A DNA stretch of 64,000 nt from Bacillota bacterium (lineage in GTDB: Bacteria > Bacillota > Clostridia > Peptostreptococcales > Anaerovoracaceae): the NCBI GenBank assembly GCA_017432345.1, contig JAFRJI010000027.1:38474-102473 (forward strand), read 5' to 3'. Shown here one piece after another: positions 57,739 to 63,094 of the stretch; positions within the stretch are counted from its first letter, which is position 1; every line of letters begins with the position of its first letter. The position numbers were made by a program, and so were the translations under genes. The notes under the pieces were generated by a model. The model did no database searches, was not told the DNA's origin, and saw only the letters and a program-made list of their open reading frames with translations.

Positions 57739-59841
57739 ATGAAACTGAGAAAAGCCAGACTCCTGGCGATCTTTCTGGCCGTTGCGATTTCGGTAACGTT
57801 CATTCCAACGTTCTCATTCGCGGCAACGTCCCTGAAAGCACCTGCCAAAGTGAAGGCCACGGTCGTATCCGATACTGCCGTACAGGTCAGCTGGGGCAAA
57901 GTAAAAGGCGCAAAAGGCTACTTAGTGTATCAGAAACAAGCTGATTCCAAGTACAAATTAGCCAAGAAGATCAAAAAAGGAGCGACCGTCAAGTGGGTCA
58001 GCAACAATCTGACCACCGGAGAAAAGTACAGCTTCAAGATCAAAGCATTTAAGGGAAAGAAGAAGAGTAAATTCTCCAAAGAAGTTTCGGCAATTCCAAG
58101 CCCGCCGGCAGCATCCATTTTCATGAATGGTAAAGTCTACACGGTAGAGGGCGAAGATTGGGAAAACAACGCAGTCGAAGCGATGGCCGTAGATGCCGAA
58201 GGTAAGCTCTTAGGCGTAGGAAGCACAGCAGAAATCACAGCCCAGTTCAAGGGAGATAACACAGAAGTCGTCGACCTTGGTGGAAAGACCGTATTCCCGG
58301 GCTTCATTGATTCCCATATCCATCCACCTGGACCAGCATTTACAGTATTATATGAAATCAGCCTGAGTGGTATTTTTACAAAGGAAGAAACACTGAGCGT
58401 CATCAAGGACTTTGTTGATTCACATCCTGACATGGATGCGTATTTCGGATTTGGATACAGCAATGCTGTAACGGATAAAGACGGAAATGTTGAGGCTGTA
58501 AACAGAGCATGGCTGGACGAGATCTGCGCAGATAAGCCGATCGTACTTTCATCGTTTGACTATCACAGCAGATGGCTGAATACAAAGGCATTAGAGATGT
58601 GCGGTATCACGAAGGACACCCTGGCTCCGGAAGGCGGAGACATCAAGAAGGATCTTGATGGAGAATTGACCGGCGTACTGACCGATTGCAGTGGCCTCGT
58701 AACTTTATCGGCAGAGTATACTGAAGATCAGATCGAAGAAGCATGGAAGTGGTTCTTTGAGAGGATGAACAGCTGGGGATACACCGGATACAGTGATGCC
58801 GGAACGAGCTCCGGGTATGCGGACATGCTGATGGAAAAATCCAAGGCTGAAAACGGACTGCCTGTAAGAATCAATTTCGCGGGAATGATGTCTGCAGATG
58901 ACATTGATGGAAGCATCGCGAGATTGGATGCTCTGAAGGAAAAAGTCGGCGATACGAAGGATATCCGCGTAACGACCGCTAAGATCTTTGCAGATGGCGT
59001 TGTAGAAGGCGGAACGGCCTATCTGTGGGAACCGTATAAGCAACCGGCATTGCAGAACCTCTTCGGAAAAGAAGAAACTGACTGGATAGGTGCGATCAAG
59101 CTTTCACAGGAAGATCTGAACGAACTCACTCTGAAGGCAAATGCTAAAGGTTACCCGATCCACGTTCACTCCATCGGTGACCGTGCAACGACGATGACCC
59201 TTGATGCCATCGAATACGCACAGACCGAACTGGCGAAGGAGGGTGTAAAGGATGAATGCAGAAATATCATCACGCACCTGCAGGTCGTAGATCAGGACGA
59301 TATCCAGAGATTCAAGGAGTTGGGCGTTATCGCTGCATGTCAGGTATTCTGGCACTTCAAGGCTCCGGATATGTATTGGCCGATCGAAGAGCCGCTCCTT
59401 GGCAAAGCGAGAGCCGCTAGAGAATATCCGCTGAACAGTTTCTATAGAATCGGTGTTCCTATCACAGCATCCGGAGACTATCCTATTTCACCGGTGAACA
59501 ACCCGTTCTGGGCAATCGAAATAGGCGTTACCAGAAACCTTGAAAACGCGGAATTCTATAAGGGCAGCTTCCCTGATATCAAAGATATCGAAGACATGGA
59601 TGAAAAGACATACCTGCTGAACCCTGCTGAAAGAGTTCCTCTGAAGGCAATGATCGAAGCATACACGATCAATGGCGCATATCAGATGAACTATGAAGAC
59701 GTTTGCGGTTCCCTGAAGGCAGGCAAGGTTGCTGACTTTGTTGTTTGCGATACCGACCCATTCGAGATCAACCCTGTTAAGATCGATGAGGTCAAAGTGC
59801 TCAAGACATACAAGGACGGCAAGATCGTTTGGGAAGAATAA
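57739..59841 (+). CDS. Secreted FnIII-amidohydrolase (YtcJ-like)
   Basis: 700 residues. Signal peptide (about 1-29, ending SFAA). A fibronectin type III domain (about 33-115: APAKVKATVVSDTAVQVSWGKVKGAKGYLVY) precedes a YtcJ-type amidohydrolase (about 125-700): metal motif VFPGFIDSHIHPPGPAF, KIFADGVVEGGTAYL, HVHSIGDRATTMTLDA and ITASGDYPISPVNNPF. Such enzymes hydrolyse amide or carbamate bonds; the substrate is unknown. Export and an FnIII module are unusual for this normally cytosolic family. T/A-rich, expression-biased codons resemble those of patA. RBS GAGGAGGTG; terminator follows. Confidence 0.88.
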   Translation: MKLRKARLLAIFLAVAISVTFIPTFSFAATSLKAPAKVKATVVSDTAVQVSWGKVKGAKGYLVYQKQADSKYKLAKKIKKGATVKWVSNNLTTGEKYSFKIKAFKGKKKSKFSKEVSAIPSPPAASIFMNGKVYTVEGEDWENNAVEAMAVDAEGKLLGVGSTAEITAQFKGDNTEVVDLGGKTVFPGFIDSHIHPPGPAFTVLYEISLSGIFTKEETLSVIKDFVDSHPDMDAYFGFGYSNAVTDKDGNVEAVNRAWLDEICADKPIVLSSFDYHSRWLNTKALEMCGITKDTLAPEGGDIKKDLDGELTGVLTDCSGLVTLSAEYTEDQIEEAWKWFFERMNSWGYTGYSDAGTSSGYADMLMEKSKAENGLPVRINFAGMMSADDIDGSIARLDALKEKVGDTKDIRVTTAKIFADGVVEGGTAYLWEPYKQPALQNLFGKEETDWIGAIKLSQEDLNELTLKANAKGYPIHVHSIGDRATTMTLDAIEYAQTELAKEGVKDECRNIITHLQVVDQDDIQRFKELGVIAACQVFWHFKAPDMYWPIEEPLLGKARAAREYPLNSFYRIGVPITASGDYPISPVNNPFWAIEIGVTRNLENAEFYKGSFPDIKDIEDMDEKTYLLNPAERVPLKAMIEAYTINGAYQMNYEDVCGSLKAGKVADFVVCDTDPFEINPVKIDEVKVLKTYKDGKIVWEE

Positions 59842-59888
59842 GTAATTATCCATATACACCAACAAAAATGATAATTTGAGAGAGAAGA

Positions 59889-59931
59889 AGAGGGCAGCAG
59901 AGGCGAATCTGCTGCTCTCTTTCTGTTTTTT
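59889..59931 (+). terminator. Intrinsic terminator of the amidohydrolase gene
   Basis: AGAGGGCAGCAG - AGGCGAAT - CTGCTGCTCTCT (one G-T pair), then TTCTGTTTTTT. Confidence 0.88.
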
Positions 59932-59947: not shown

Positions 59948-59976
59948 TTGACAAAACGAACAAATGTTCGTATAAT
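59948..59976 (+). promoter_or_regulatory. Consensus sigma-A promoter of the 87-residue gene
   Basis: TTGACA (59948-59953), exactly 17 bp, TATAAT (59971-59976): both hexamers perfect. Confidence 0.93.
59957..59970. promoter_or_regulatory. LexA (SOS/DinR) box
   Basis: CGAACAAATGTTCG matches the Gram-positive LexA consensus CGAACNNNNGTTCG at every defined position. It fills the spacer between the -35 and -10, where bound LexA would shut the promoter. Confidence 0.88.
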
Positions 59977-60026
59977 AAAACCGCAGCATACCATCCTAAA
60001 AGGGGAAACAGGGAGGTGGGTCAGTA

Positions 60027-60290
60027 ATGAAACTTTTGCAAAAGCCCATTGATGCCATGGTCGTGTTCCGCGCGGAGAACGATTATCCGCGGCCATACAA
60101 ATTCAAGATCGAAGAGAACGGGGAGAAAGTCACCGTATTCGTGGATCAGGTGATCTATTCGCACAAGAGCAAAGTCTGCGGAGCGGAGAACATTCTGTAC
60201 GAATGCCAGAGCACGATCAATGGGGAAGAGAAGCGGTTTGAACTGAAGTATTTCTGTTCGAAATGTCAATGGCAGCTCTACAAAATGTGA
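60027..60290 (+). CDS. LexA-controlled 87-residue protein of unknown function
   Basis: 87 residues, soluble, with RBS GGGAGGTGGG. Starts MKLLQKPIDAMVVFRAENDYPRPYKF and ends YFCSKCQWQLYKM. Four cysteines (51, 60, 77, 80), the last two as CxxC. Alternating hydrophobic/charged residues suggest a small beta-rich fold. I recognise no named family. It is the only gene of its transcript that I can see: perfect promoter with a LexA box upstream, repeat array downstream. An SOS-induced role in DNA damage response is inferred from regulation alone. Confidence 0.8.
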   Translation: MKLLQKPIDAMVVFRAENDYPRPYKFKIEENGEKVTVFVDQVIYSHKSKVCGAENILYECQSTINGEEKRFELKYFCSKCQWQLYKM

Positions 60291-60352: not shown

Positions 60353-60620
60353 AAACCCAAACTTCTACACAAAACAGCTCGCAACCTTCTAGCTTGTGTA
60401 GATTTTTCCGGAAACCATCGAAAAATCATTGCCTCTTGGTGGAGACATCTACACAGACAGCCTCTCATCCCACGGTTTTGTGTAGACGTGCCACCGTCAA
60501 GCCCCGACATCCATGAAATATCTACACAAACAAGGCAGGTCAACCGTGTTTTGTGTAGAAGTCTGGGTTTCACCAATCACAGGTCTCGCATCAGGTCGAC
60601 CGTGTTTTGTATAGAAGTCT
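60353..60620. repeat. Array of inverted-repeat units (TCTACACA ... TGTGTAGA)
   Basis: Three 39-nt units at 60364-60402, 60448-60486 and 60521-60559 each begin TCTACACA and end TGTGTAGA with different 23-nt interiors. A fourth, half-decayed unit ends TATAGA at 60615. A 29-nt segment is repeated directly (60536-60564 and 60592-60620, two mismatches). The 24 nt at 60353-60376 are the reverse complement of 60547-60570 with one mismatch. Spacers are 45, 34 and about 17 nt. No ORF with coding character is present from 60291 to 60746. Confidence 0.85.
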
Positions 60621-60692
60621 AGTGAAACTTGTACCTCTTATACTTGTTTTTTTCGCCGGCAGAATATATCATATATATGTAGTTTAATGGGG

Positions 60693-60714
60693 GAATCTGT
60701 GCGAAAACAGATTC
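60693..60714 (+). promoter_or_regulatory. Hairpin in the leader of the xpaC-telA operon
   Basis: GAATCTGT-GCGAAA-ACAGATTC, a perfect 8-bp stem 33 nt before the ATG, in an AT-rich region with TATATC/TATAT sequences just upstream that may be the -10. No T-run, so it is not a terminator. Confidence 0.45.
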
Positions 60715-60746
60715 GGGTATCAGGATTAGAAAAAGAGGTAAAGAGA

Positions 60747-61862
60747 ATGAACGATTTTAATCAACAGCACAACAGCGATTACGATCCGAAGCCGGAAATC
60801 AGACCGCTTTATGAGCAGGTCTGGTTCATTGTGGTCGTCTTTATTTTTTTCTGGCCGGCTGGATTAATGCTGGCGGTATGGAGATTCATCAGGGATCAGC
60901 AAATCAGCGCAGTGGCGCAGGCCAGTGAGGAGATGCCGCCGCTGAGCGATCAGCCGGATGGCGATCCGGAGGCCCAGAAAGAGGCGCAGAAGCAAAAGCT
61001 CACGAAGTCCAAGATCGAGGCAAGCAGAAGCTGCCGCAGTTGGAAAATCTTGGGCGGCGTGCTCATCGCGCTGGGTGCGTGCGTGCTGATCGGGTCTTCT
61101 TCCGGCGGCGAGACGATGAGAGAAGTCATCACGTCATTGTCAACGGGCGCGGGCTTTATCATCGCAGGTGCGGTCATGCTGATCGCCGCGAAGAAAACGG
61201 TCCAGAAGTGGGATCGGTACGAATCCTTTATCAACAATAAGGGAAATACGCCTATTCCGTTCCTGGCTGAAAAGATGGGCTATTCTGAGAAGACCGTCCG
61301 CGTGGATGTGCAGGCAATGATCAATAAGGGATTTTTTGACAAGCCGGGGAAGGGCCTTTCCGCTTACATCAATGGGGAATATGATCTGCTCGTCATGACC
61401 AAATACGGCGAGCCGATGCAGCCTTTGCGGAAGGCGACCGTGAAGAAGGAAGACCGGCCGCCGGCCAATTCTTATCTGGCGAAGCTGCAGACAGAGATCG
61501 ACCGCTCGAACGACGCGGAACTGACGGAGACGCTTCGCGATATGTACGGATCCATCAAGCGGATCGAAGCGAAGATCCAGGAGGAGCCGTCACTGGGCGA
61601 GATGACGAACATCCGCAAGCTGAAGGAACAGTATCTGCCGCAGACGCTGGAACTGATCCGGAAGTTCAACGACGGGGAAGGTTCCGATGCGACGAGATGG
61701 GAAATCAAGGCGATGCTTGGAACATGCGCAAAAGCCTTCAAGAATATCGAAGGCAAAGTGTACGAGAGAGACGATATAGATACGAAGGTCGATATGGAAG
61801 TCCTGCGTAAGACCCTGGAGAGGGAAGGACTTCTTGGATCGGATTTTGATATCAAATCATAG
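60747..61862 (+). CDS. XpaC-like (5-bromo-4-chloroindolyl phosphate hydrolysis) membrane protein
   Basis: 371 residues from ATG 60747 (RBS AAAGAGGTAAAG). Hydrophobic helices at about 27-48, 112-130 and 137-157. A winged-helix-like stretch follows (IPFLAEKMGYSEKTVRVDVQAMINKGFF, about 182-210). The C-terminal coiled-coil region (LAKLQTEIDRSNDAELTETLRDMYGSIKRIEAKIQEEP, MTNIRKLKEQYLPQTLELIRKFND in pieces) is the XpaC signature. XpaC and TelA genes are adjacent in many Firmicutes. Whether it is an enzyme is unclear despite the family name. 14 bp before telA. Confidence 0.82.
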   Translation: MNDFNQQHNSDYDPKPEIRPLYEQVWFIVVVFIFFWPAGLMLAVWRFIRDQQISAVAQASEEMPPLSDQPDGDPEAQKEAQKQKLTKSKIEASRSCRSWKILGGVLIALGACVLIGSSSGGETMREVITSLSTGAGFIIAGAVMLIAAKKTVQKWDRYESFINNKGNTPIPFLAEKMGYSEKTVRVDVQAMINKGFFDKPGKGLSAYINGEYDLLVMTKYGEPMQPLRKATVKKEDRPPANSYLAKLQTEIDRSNDAELTETLRDMYGSIKRIEAKIQEEPSLGEMTNIRKLKEQYLPQTLELIRKFNDGEGSDATRWEIKAMLGTCAKAFKNIEGKVYERDDIDTKVDMEVLRKTLEREGLLGSDFDIKS

Positions 61863-61876
61863 AGAGGAGAACGAAT

Positions 61877-63094
61877 ATGATAGACGATCTGAAGACGGAT
61901 ATTAAAGCACCTGAAGCACCGGAACTGACATTGGATGTGCCGGAAATGGAGATTCCTAAAACGGAGAACCTGGCAGCGGCAATGGAAGCGATGGCACCGG
62001 AACCGGAGGAAATCAACCTGGAAAAGATAGAATCCGTTATGAGCAAGGAAGATGCGGACACATTCCGGCTGCAGAACTTTACGGACGAAGAGAAGCAGCA
62101 GATCAATGAGTTCGCGGAGAAGATCGACCTGCACGACACGAACATCATCGTTTCCTACGGCGCAGGCGCGCAGAAGAGACTGGCAGAGTTCTCGGATTCC
62201 GCGCTGGAGCACGTCAGAAACAAGGATCTGGATGAAATCGGCGGCATGATCACCGATCTGGTAGCTGACCTGAAATATGATCCGGATGAAGACAAGGGAT
62301 TCCTGTGGAATCTGTTCCACAAGGGCGCCAACAAGGTCGAGAATGTGAAGGAATACTATGCGAAGGTCGAAGACAGTGTCGACAAGGTCGCGAAGAATCT
62401 GGAAGGACATCAGCAGACGCTCCTGAAGGACATCGCGATCCAGGATATGCTCTTTGACAGCAACAAGGCATACTTCAAAGAACTGACCATGTACATCGCG
62501 GCCGGAAAGATCGCGCTGGACAAGGCGTTGAATGAAGAGTTGCCGGCCATGAAGGCGAGAGCCGCGGAAACCGGCCTGTCCGAAGTGGCGCAGGAAGTCA
62601 GCGATTATTCCGCTATGTGCGACCGGTTCGAGAAGAGACTGCACGATCTGGAACTGACGAGAGCGATCTGCCTGCAGAACGCACCGCAGATCCGGCTGAT
62701 CCAGAACAACGCGATCCTGCTTTCCGACAAGATCCACTCCACGCTGGTCAACACACTTCCGCTCTGGAAGAACCAGATGATCATCACGCTGGGACTGGCA
62801 CACTCCAAGGAAGCGGTCGAAGCGCAGAACGCGGTCACCAATACGACCAATGAGCTTCTAAAGAAGAATGCGGAGATGCTCCACCAGACATCCGTCGACA
62901 TCGCCAGAGAAAACGAGCGCGGCATCGTCGATATGGAAACGCTGCAGCACACGAACAACGAGCTGGTCAACACGCTGGACGACATCATGAAGATTCAGCA
63001 GGAGGGCAGACAGAAGCGGCGTGAAGCGGAGAAAGAACTCATAGCGATCGAAGCTCAGATCAAAGCTAAGATGCTGGAAATGTCAACTCGATAA
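61877..63094 (+). CDS. telA: TelA/KlaA-family protein (toxic anion resistance)
   Basis: 405 residues, soluble and almost wholly alpha-helical. Landmarks: NFTDEEKQQINEFAEKIDLHDTNIIVSYGAGAQKRLAEFSDSAL, FHKGANKVENVKEYYAKVEDSVDKVAKNLEGHQQTLLKDI, then LYSCKxx-like region MYIAAGKIALDKA and NAPQIRLIQNNAILLSDKIHSTLVNTLPLWKNQMIITLGL, each in pieces. Originally tied to tellurite resistance; in Firmicutes it is linked to antimicrobial peptide and cell-wall stress. RBS AGAGAGGAG. The next gene starts immediately after its stop. Confidence 0.92.
   Translation: MIDDLKTDIKAPEAPELTLDVPEMEIPKTENLAAAMEAMAPEPEEINLEKIESVMSKEDADTFRLQNFTDEEKQQINEFAEKIDLHDTNIIVSYGAGAQKRLAEFSDSALEHVRNKDLDEIGGMITDLVADLKYDPDEDKGFLWNLFHKGANKVENVKEYYAKVEDSVDKVAKNLEGHQQTLLKDIAIQDMLFDSNKAYFKELTMYIAAGKIALDKALNEELPAMKARAAETGLSEVAQEVSDYSAMCDRFEKRLHDLELTRAICLQNAPQIRLIQNNAILLSDKIHSTLVNTLPLWKNQMIITLGLAHSKEAVEAQNAVTNTTNELLKKNAEMLHQTSVDIARENERGIVDMETLQHTNNELVNTLDDIMKIQQEGRQKRREAEKELIAIEAQIKAKMLEMSTR

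What the first reader, a model, noticed from the sequence alone, without database searches (positions are those of the whole stretch)
59948..60290. Perfect LexA box inside a perfect promoter drives an unknown 87-residue gene
CGAACAAATGTTCG, a full match to the Gram-positive SOS box, fills the 17-bp spacer between TTGACA and TATAAT. The only gene behind it encodes a small four-cysteine protein (CxxC near the end) that I cannot place. SOS genes with such clean control are usually repair enzymes, division inhibitors, toxins or mobile-element switches, so this protein is a good candidate for an undescribed DNA-damage effector.
Basis: partly seen in the sequence, partly recalled or inferred. Interest (0 to 1): 0.75.

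Follow-up and report, generated by a model that had tools for sequence, protein, structure and literature searches.

The report
SOS-switched helper of error-prone DNA polymerases
A tiny bacterial gene sits behind a textbook DNA-damage switch, and its relatives suggest that it makes a small helper of the error-prone DNA polymerases that copy damaged DNA, here run from its own separate switch.

Summary
In detail: TTGACA-17-TATAAT with CGAACAAATGTTCG in the spacer, then an 87-aa gene. The box is unlikely to be chance. It recurs in the same promoter register in all 13 other close same-genus orthologues examined (14 of 14 with this one). In this genome recA, a YneA-like gene and an rSAM_link_UDG gene carry the same core.

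Of 98 family loci examined, 52 genes lie directly behind a Y-family polymerase gene; 32 of the other 46 have their own perfect box within 300 bp; 14 have neither.

The protein can be placed. Profile comparison joins the family end to end to Pfam DUF6504 (hhalign 96.5%; score 53.8, at most 16.0 in 200 column shuffles), although the curated DUF6504 model itself does not hit it. By gene order DUF6504 is the published standalone ImuB-C of Deinococcus lexA-imuY-imuB-C-dnaE2.

Best reading: a divergent clostridial standalone ImuB-C, an SOS-induced accessory subunit for translesion polymerase(s), here detached from any polymerase gene. SOS control and family are well supported; partner and biochemical role are inferred. 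ImuB-C coupled to clostridial polymerases is in print; the detached unit with its own LexA promoter and the clade's four-cysteine set I did not find described.

The parts
59887..59922 (+). Intrinsic terminator behind the upstream amidohydrolase gene (57739-59841), separating it from the SOS promoter
   Evidence: Terminator scan: 15-bp stem plus T-tract; upstream gene matches PF07969
59948..59953 (+). -35 hexamer TTGACA
   Evidence: Sequence; promoter scan 12/12 with a 17-bp spacer
59957..59970 (+). LexA (SOS) box CGAACAAATGTTCG inside the promoter spacer
   Evidence: Exact pattern match; perfect GAACN4GTTC in the same register in 14 of 14 close same-genus loci, this one included; same core before recA, a YneA-like gene and rSAM_link_UDG in this genome
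59971..59976 (+). -10 hexamer TATAAT
   Evidence: Sequence
60011..60019 (+). Ribosome-binding site GGGAGGTGG
   Evidence: Read directly from the sequence
60027..60290 (+). 87-aa gene: clostridial standalone ImuB-C-like (DUF6504-related) protein, predicted accessory subunit of Y-family translesion polymerase
   Evidence: Family alignment, gene contexts, profile-profile match to DUF6504 with shuffle control

Best explanation
The gene encodes a divergent clostridial member of the ImuB-C (Pfam DUF6504) superfamily, small proteins predicted to be mainly beta-stranded that go with error-prone translesion polymerases. LexA sits on the box between the -35 and -10 and blocks RNA polymerase; when RecA filaments on damaged DNA trigger LexA self-cleavage, the protein is made. 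It then joins a Y-family polymerase, probably together with RecA, and helps it act at stalled forks. In most relatives examined the gene lies in a polymerase operon. In this genus it is usually detached and carries its own LexA promoter. In this genome neither Y-family polymerase gene found has a LexA box in the DNA held, so the helper may be the damage-inducible component of lesion bypass. Shown here: promoter, box, its conservation, family relationship by profile, gene contexts. Inferred: LexA binding, induction, physical partnership, and effect on bypass or mutagenesis.
For: (1) Perfect GAACN4GTTC in the promoter spacer in 14 of 14 close same-genus loci, this one included. (2) The genome has lexA (TIGR00498, 223 bits). 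The GAACRNNYGTTC core precedes recA, a YneA-like LysM gene (PRK14125, 56.1 bits, just under its cut-off of 60) and rSAM_link_UDG (585.7 bits). (3) Of 98 family loci, 52 lie 250 bp or less behind a same-strand Y-family polymerase gene. Of the other 46, 32 have a perfect box in the 300 bp upstream, 6 of these with a polymerase gene directly downstream. On the one tree built, polymerase-led and own-box arrangements interchange at least 9 times by parsimony; branches with strong support force at least 6 changes of the polymerase-led label. (4) Of 44 polymerase-led operons whose upstream DNA is held, 23 have a perfect box before the polymerase gene and 15 only a one-mismatch site. (5) hhalign to DUF6504: 96.5%, residues 1-87, score 53.8; best of 200 column-shuffled controls 16.0, reversed 9.1; two DUF6504 subsets gave 97.0% (17 sequences) and 90.1% (11). 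(6) DUF6504 stands between the Y-family polymerase and dnaE in lexA-polY-DUF6504-dnaE on D. deserti and Deinococcus sp. QL22 plasmids. PMC8072749 (passages) names the 80-residue D. deserti gene at that place standalone ImuB-C. (7) PMC6511836 (section 17) reports ImuB-C coupled to YqjH-type polymerases mostly from Clostridia. (8) In 14 genomes with the close orthologue, a UmuC-type polymerase gene was found in 13: 7 have a perfect box upstream of it, 6 of these 7 in the same TTGAC..box..TATAAT design; in an eighth (G033) the order is box, this gene, overlapping UmuC-type gene.
Against: The curated models do not hit: Pfam and NCBIfam give nothing significant for the window protein or for the 28 aligned members, and PF20114 was found in 0 of 61 relative genomes. 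Membership rests on profile comparison; in the reverse direction this family's model reaches DUF6504 proteins only at 1.5e-4 in a 30-sequence set. Fourteen of 46 detached loci have neither a perfect box nor a recognised polymerase: 5 have a one-mismatch box; 3 follow a DNA adenine methyltransferase-like gene (Pfam-checked in one, L080, which also has a one-mismatch site); one follows lexA; one is cut by the contig end; 4 have no explanation. Outside the genus clade many boxes do not lie in a good -35/-10 spacer, and some are 150-215 bp from the gene. Six of 44 polymerase-led operons show no box, and a one-mismatch site in such a stretch is common by chance (about 1 in 7, my arithmetic). Five of 13 UmuC-type genes in the genus, this genome's included, and 12 of 12 DinB-type loci show no perfect box, so co-induction of partner and helper is not general. 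PMC11791113 (abstract and passages) found that ImuB-C stabilises but is not needed for ImuB-ImuA' binding. No structure could be predicted, the PDB profile search found no relative, and I saw no experiment on this clade.
Confidence: 0.7

Rival explanations
1. It is an SOS-induced ImuB-C-like protein that acts without any Y-family polymerase, as a damaged-DNA binder or recruiter for other repair enzymes (Aravind et al. proposed DNA-damage recognition and reported standalone ImuB-C also beside photolyase-like, Ku/ligase and SRAP genes).
For: No polymerase gene within 250 bp in 13 of 14 close same-genus loci, as far as their contigs reach. Three loci sit behind a DNA adenine methyltransferase-like gene (PF02086 confirmed for L080). 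PMC3765255 passages propose damaged-DNA binding.
Against: Linkage to a polymerase is the commonest context in the family (52 of 98 upstream, 6 downstream). In the one linked genus locus the neighbour is a UmuC-type polymerase with overlapping ORFs (L025).
Confidence: 0.18
2. A different kind of SOS effector (toxin, division inhibitor, zinc-ribbon regulator or mobile-element switch) that merely resembles ImuB-C.
For: Four cysteines (51, 60, 77, 80) are conserved together in 14 of 14 close same-genus members, which would suit a metal site; the gene stands alone with a clean SOS promoter.
Against: The four-Cys set is absent from the other 82 of 96 sequences (one, L070, has the CxxC alone). No significant match in Pfam, NCBIfam or PHROGs and none in 50,697 phage records; the family-wide invariants P23, C60 and W82 (96 of 96) belong to a family linked to polymerases. 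PADLOC was not searched.
Confidence: 0.08
3. The LexA box is a chance palindrome in a strong constitutive promoter.
For: Bare counts of the box in the genome do not exceed the backward control; 11 of 100 window shuffles reach the 3 one-mismatch matches seen.
Against: Same register in 14 of 14 close orthologues; 32 of 46 family loci not led by a polymerase have a perfect box within 300 bp; same core before recA and other SOS-type genes here.
Confidence: 0.03

Closest known systems
Standalone ImuB-C / Pfam DUF6504 (D. deserti imuB-C in lexA-imuY-imuB-C-dnaE2; Geobacter lexA-imuB-C-polY)
   Same: Size (about 80-90 aa), end-to-end profile alignment including the C-terminal W.LYK, SOS linkage, operons with Y-family polymerase and sometimes lexA.
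   Different: Not recognised by the DUF6504 model; here a separate transcription unit with its own LexA box and no polymerase or dnaE neighbour; C60 invariant in this family has no counterpart in the DUF6504 consensus (alignment).
Clostridial PolY (YqjH subgroups) + ImuB-C operons reported by Timinskas and Venclovas 2019 (PMC6511836)
   Same: Probably the same branch (inferred; their sequence lists were not seen): polymerase gene directly upstream in 52 of 98 loci, a few overlapping by 4 bp.
   Different: In this genus the gene is usually outside the operon and the Y-family polymerases are elsewhere.
YolD/YqjX, SOS-induced partner of UvrX/YqjW in Gram-positives
   Same: Small SOS-controlled Y-polymerase partner; in S. 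aureus yolD lies apart from the polymerase with its own LexA site (PMC6511836 passage).
   Different: Different family: no YolD (PF08863) hit for any of 28 members at E of 1 or less; PMC12926913 (passages) models ImuB-C as a barrel unlike the UmuD'/YqjX SH3 barrel.

Membership tests
ImuB-C / DUF6504 superfamily | Profile similarity along the domain | tested here: met
   hhalign 96.5%, score 53.8, residues 1-87, vs best 16.0 of 200 column shuffles; hmmsearch of the DUF6504 model against family members reaches 1.1e-8, the reverse search 1.5e-4 (small databases)
ImuB-C / DUF6504 superfamily | Match to the curated Pfam PF20114 model above its cut-off | tested here: not met
   No PF20114 hit for the window protein or the 28 members at E of 1 or less; 0 of 61 relative genomes. 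So it is filed as a relative of DUF6504, outside the curated model
ImuB-C / DUF6504 superfamily | Conserved C-terminal tryptophan (PMC3765255 passage) | tested here: met
   W82 in 96 of 96
ImuB-C / DUF6504 superfamily | Genomic association with Y-family polymerase / lexA | tested here: met
   Family level: polymerase upstream in 52 and downstream in 6 of 98; lexA upstream in L034, L100, L101. The window gene itself is not linked
ImuB-C / DUF6504 superfamily | Beta-barrel fold of ImuB-C | not testable with these tools
   Structure prediction switched off
LexA-regulated SOS gene | CGAAC-N4-GTTCG operator overlapping the promoter | tested here: met
LexA-regulated SOS gene | lexA and recA present and a shared operator motif in the same genome | tested here: met
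LexA-regulated SOS gene | LexA binding and induction by DNA damage | not testable with these tools
   Needs EMSA and transcript measurement
YolD (PF08863) | Match to the YolD model | tested here: not met
   No hit in 28 members at E of 1 or less

The most novel reading that the evidence does not exclude
In this lineage LexA controls lesion bypass by inducing only a small ImuB-C-type subunit. Both Y-family polymerase genes found in the genome lack LexA boxes, so a freely diffusing cofactor, possibly stabilised by a clade-specific four-cysteine metal site, is the SOS switch that licenses polymerases already present.
Probability: 0.25. Interest if true: 0.65.

Novelty: new variant of a known kind. 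Interest (0 to 1): 0.45.

Why it matters
[quoted passage not shown] A natural case in which the module is its own LexA-controlled unit, away from any polymerase gene, allows its contribution to SOS mutagenesis to be tested by deleting one small gene. It also suggests a role for a family of short hypothetical proteins in Bacillota.

Tried and rejected
Ribosomal protein L33 / zinc-ribbon reading: weak hits only. The lowest E for any Pfam or NCBIfam family was 0.0071, in one member; L33 came at 0.016-0.04, below its cut-offs. Rejected. Phage gene: best PHROGs E 0.33 and no match in phages. Plasmids gave two distant hits, one in a dinB operon. YneA-like division inhibitor: the genome has a separate YneA-like LysM gene, and the 87-aa protein has no LysM match. 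YolD: not met. DUF6504 in the S. meliloti pSymB record, meant to show the ImuB C-terminus directly: no match, so the DUF6504 = ImuB-C identity rests on the D. deserti gene order plus PMC8072749. PDB profile search: no hit. The C. difficile LexA regulon paper (PMC4234289, passages) does not hold 'dinB', 'hypothetical' or 'DNA polymerase' in its main text, so it neither supports nor refutes. DUF6504 is named in no held paper. No held paper contains both 'ImuB-C' and 'Clostridium'; seven contain 'ImuB-C'. I read passages of six of these; of PMC11237743 I saw only the listing.

Incomplete coverage: of 63 match rows, contexts were examined for 51; all 47 rows were examined. Several contigs end close to the gene. 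The genome is 81.8% complete, so a polymerase could be missing.

Corrections made on checking: the 14 of 14 now states that it includes this locus; the tree statement now gives the weaker, support-based minimum too; results against the reading were added, and confidence in the best explanation was lowered from 0.72 to 0.70 for them.

Full report
OBSERVATION. The window contains TTGACA (59948-59953), a 17-bp spacer whose last 14 bases are CGAACAAATGTTCG (59957-59970), TATAAT (59971-59976), a ribosome-binding site and an 87-codon ORF (60027-60290). The promoter scan finds 12 of 12 consensus bases; a 15-bp-stem terminator at 59887-59922 lies behind the upstream amidohydrolase gene. The box alone is not rare: CGAACN4GTTCG has 3 places in 1.82 Mb versus 4 for the backward control, and GAACRNNYGTTC 6 versus 10.

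SOS REGULON OF THIS GENOME. A lexA gene is present (PF01726 E 1.2e-18; TIGR00498 223 bits). Its own upstream shows only an imperfect palindrome, AAACAAATGTTT (read). The 6 GAACRNNYGTTC sites lie before or in: the 87-aa gene; recA; a 104-aa LysM gene close to YneA (PRK14125, 56.1 bits, cut-off 60); a gene matching TIGR03916 rSAM_link_UDG (585.7 bits); the 5' end of a TnpB-like ORF; and a LarC/transporter-like region. The last two names are my reading of the translations and these sites may be chance. So 4 of 6 sites, this one included, sit at plausible SOS genes.

CONSERVATION. Homologues occur in 44 of 100 genomes searched among relatives, own included, and in 43 of 398 across the phylum by profile, own included. 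In the 14 closest loci, L018-L031 (this one and 13 same-genus orthologues at 74-87% identity), a perfect GAACN4GTTC starts 41-70 bp before the gene. It lies behind TTGACA (10) or TTGACT (4) and, in 13 of 14, directly before a -10 with at most one mismatch at the same offset; L020 has a poorer -10. More distant same-genus homologues vary: some are in polymerase operons, some have their own box, and some have neither.

CONTEXT. I located the gene with a profile in 98 loci: 47 of 47 rows, 49 further rows, and two plasmid loci, of which L070 has the coordinates of another row (51 of 63 rows examined, 12 not). Fifty-two genes lie within 250 bp downstream of a same-strand Y-family polymerase gene. 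Of the other 46, 32 have a perfect box within 300 bp upstream, and 6 of those 32 are followed by a polymerase gene; 14 have neither. Of these 14, five have a one-mismatch box (L044, L113, L116, L130, L131); L034 follows lexA; L080, L098 and L120 follow a DNA adenine methyltransferase-like gene (PF02086 checked for L080 only); L041 is cut at the contig end, inside what reads like a polymerase tail; L039, L070, L118 and L132 remain unexplained. Outside the genus clade some boxes lie beside rather than inside a recognisable promoter spacer, and several are 150-215 bp away. Among polymerase-led operons 44 of 52 have upstream DNA held: 23 have a perfect box, 15 only a one-mismatch site, 6 none. On a 95-row tree of 87 columns, with many forks unresolved, polymerase-led and own-box states change at least 9 times by parsimony; well-supported branches force at least 6 changes of the polymerase-led label. 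Whichever way the changes ran, a gene outside the operon usually has its own LexA box. That is the strongest evidence that SOS control is the selected property.

POLYMERASES IN THE GENUS. In 14 genomes with the close orthologue, PF00817 finds Y-family polymerases in 13. A UmuC-type gene occurs in all 13. Seven have a perfect box upstream of it, 6 of these in the TTGAC..box..TATAAT design. In G033 the order is box, small gene, overlapping UmuC-type gene. Five, this genome included, show no perfect box (one of them has only 210 bases held). None of 12 DinB-type loci has a perfect box. In this genome no perfect GAACN4GTTC lies anywhere in the 3.4 kb held around either polymerase gene; the UmuC-type gene overlaps the end of the gene before it. 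The NSAYLSW-type polymerase that leads most operons of the family was not among the two found here, so the partner in this 81.8% complete genome is open.

WHAT THE PROTEIN IS. Pfam, NCBIfam and PHROGs give nothing significant. From memory I suspected DUF6504. PF20114 has 0 of 61 hits in relatives but 95 of 398 in the phylum sample. Comparing the two genome lists by eye, only G332 is in both (about 10 expected if independent), which fits replacement of one by the other, though phylogeny alone could cause it. An alignment of 30 DUF6504 proteins against 96 of this family gave hhalign 96.5%, score 53.8, residues 1-87; 200 column shuffles reached at most 16.0 and the reversed alignment 9.1; subsets of 17 and 11 DUF6504 sequences gave 97.0% and 90.1%. 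In Deinococcus plasmids DUF6504 stands in lexA-polY-DUF6504-dnaE, and PMC8072749 (passages) identifies that 80-residue D. deserti gene as standalone ImuB-C. PMC3765255 (passages) defines ImuB-C, its conserved C-terminal Trp and its links to DinB, UmuC and DnaE2. PMC6511836 (abstract, passages, section 17) reports ImuB-C with YqjH-type polymerases mostly from Clostridia. PMC12926913 (passages) models ImuB-C as a barrel without a close PDB match. PMC11791113 (abstract and passages) found that ImuB-C stabilises but is not essential for ImuB-ImuA' binding, which counts against too central a role. PMC10421592 (two passages) recalls that removing the ImuB C-terminal 168 residues phenocopies deletion of imuB; that stretch includes more than ImuB-C.

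CYSTEINES. P23, C60 and W82 are invariant in 96 of 96; C80 is present in 79 of 96. The set C51, C60, C77, C80 occurs in exactly 14 of 96, the 14 closest loci; L070 alone shares the CxxC.

MECHANISM. Shown: promoter-operator design, its conservation, the family relationship by profile, and the alternative gene arrangements. Inferred: LexA binds and represses; DNA damage induces; the protein joins a Y-family polymerase (and RecA) and supports lesion bypass. That the helper is the only LexA-boxed part of the bypass machinery here is suggested by the missing boxes at both polymerase genes found, but the genome is incomplete.

NOVELTY. The superfamily and its polymerase link are known. I did not find in print the detached unit with its own LexA promoter in Clostridia, nor the four-Cys clade (searches, all within the held open-access library; subscription papers are mostly missing). 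A close analogy exists: S. aureus yolD, apart from uvrX, with its own LexA site (PMC6511836 passage).

Noticed in passing
window 60364-60615 (+/-): Seven copies (0-1 mismatch) of TTTGTGTAGA, mostly in alternating orientation, in the 397-bp gap after the gene; 15 such matches in the whole window against 1.8 expected, 0 of 100 shuffles as many. Possible repeat element or cluster of binding sites.
   Followed up: partly
L066 1501-1512 and following ORF (G000:C20:7917): A perfect GAACATTTGTTC box before a TIGR03916 rSAM_link_UDG gene: a likely SOS-regulated putative DNA repair radical-SAM gene.
   Followed up: partly
L080, L098, L120 (two Bacillota genomes): The same small family directly behind a D12-class DNA adenine methyltransferase-like gene (PF02086 confirmed for L080), in genomes with six matches each.
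   Followed up: no
L064 1501-1512 (G000:C18:27689): A LexA-type box GAACAAACGTTC at the 5' end of a TnpB-like ORF; may be chance or an SOS-responsive element. TnpB naming is my reading of the translation.
   Followed up: no
398 genomes: The clostridial family (43 genomes) and DUF6504 (95 genomes) share only one genome, G332, as if one replaces the other.
   Followed up: partly
L034, L100, L101 (one genome, G031): Three copies of the family in one genome, two behind lexA and a polymerase gene and one directly behind lexA.
   Followed up: no
window 60687-63094: An ORF without an informative family match, followed by TelA (PF05816, 379.8 bits), downstream on the same strand; no plus-strand terminator found between them and the SOS gene, so read-through is possible.
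   Followed up: no
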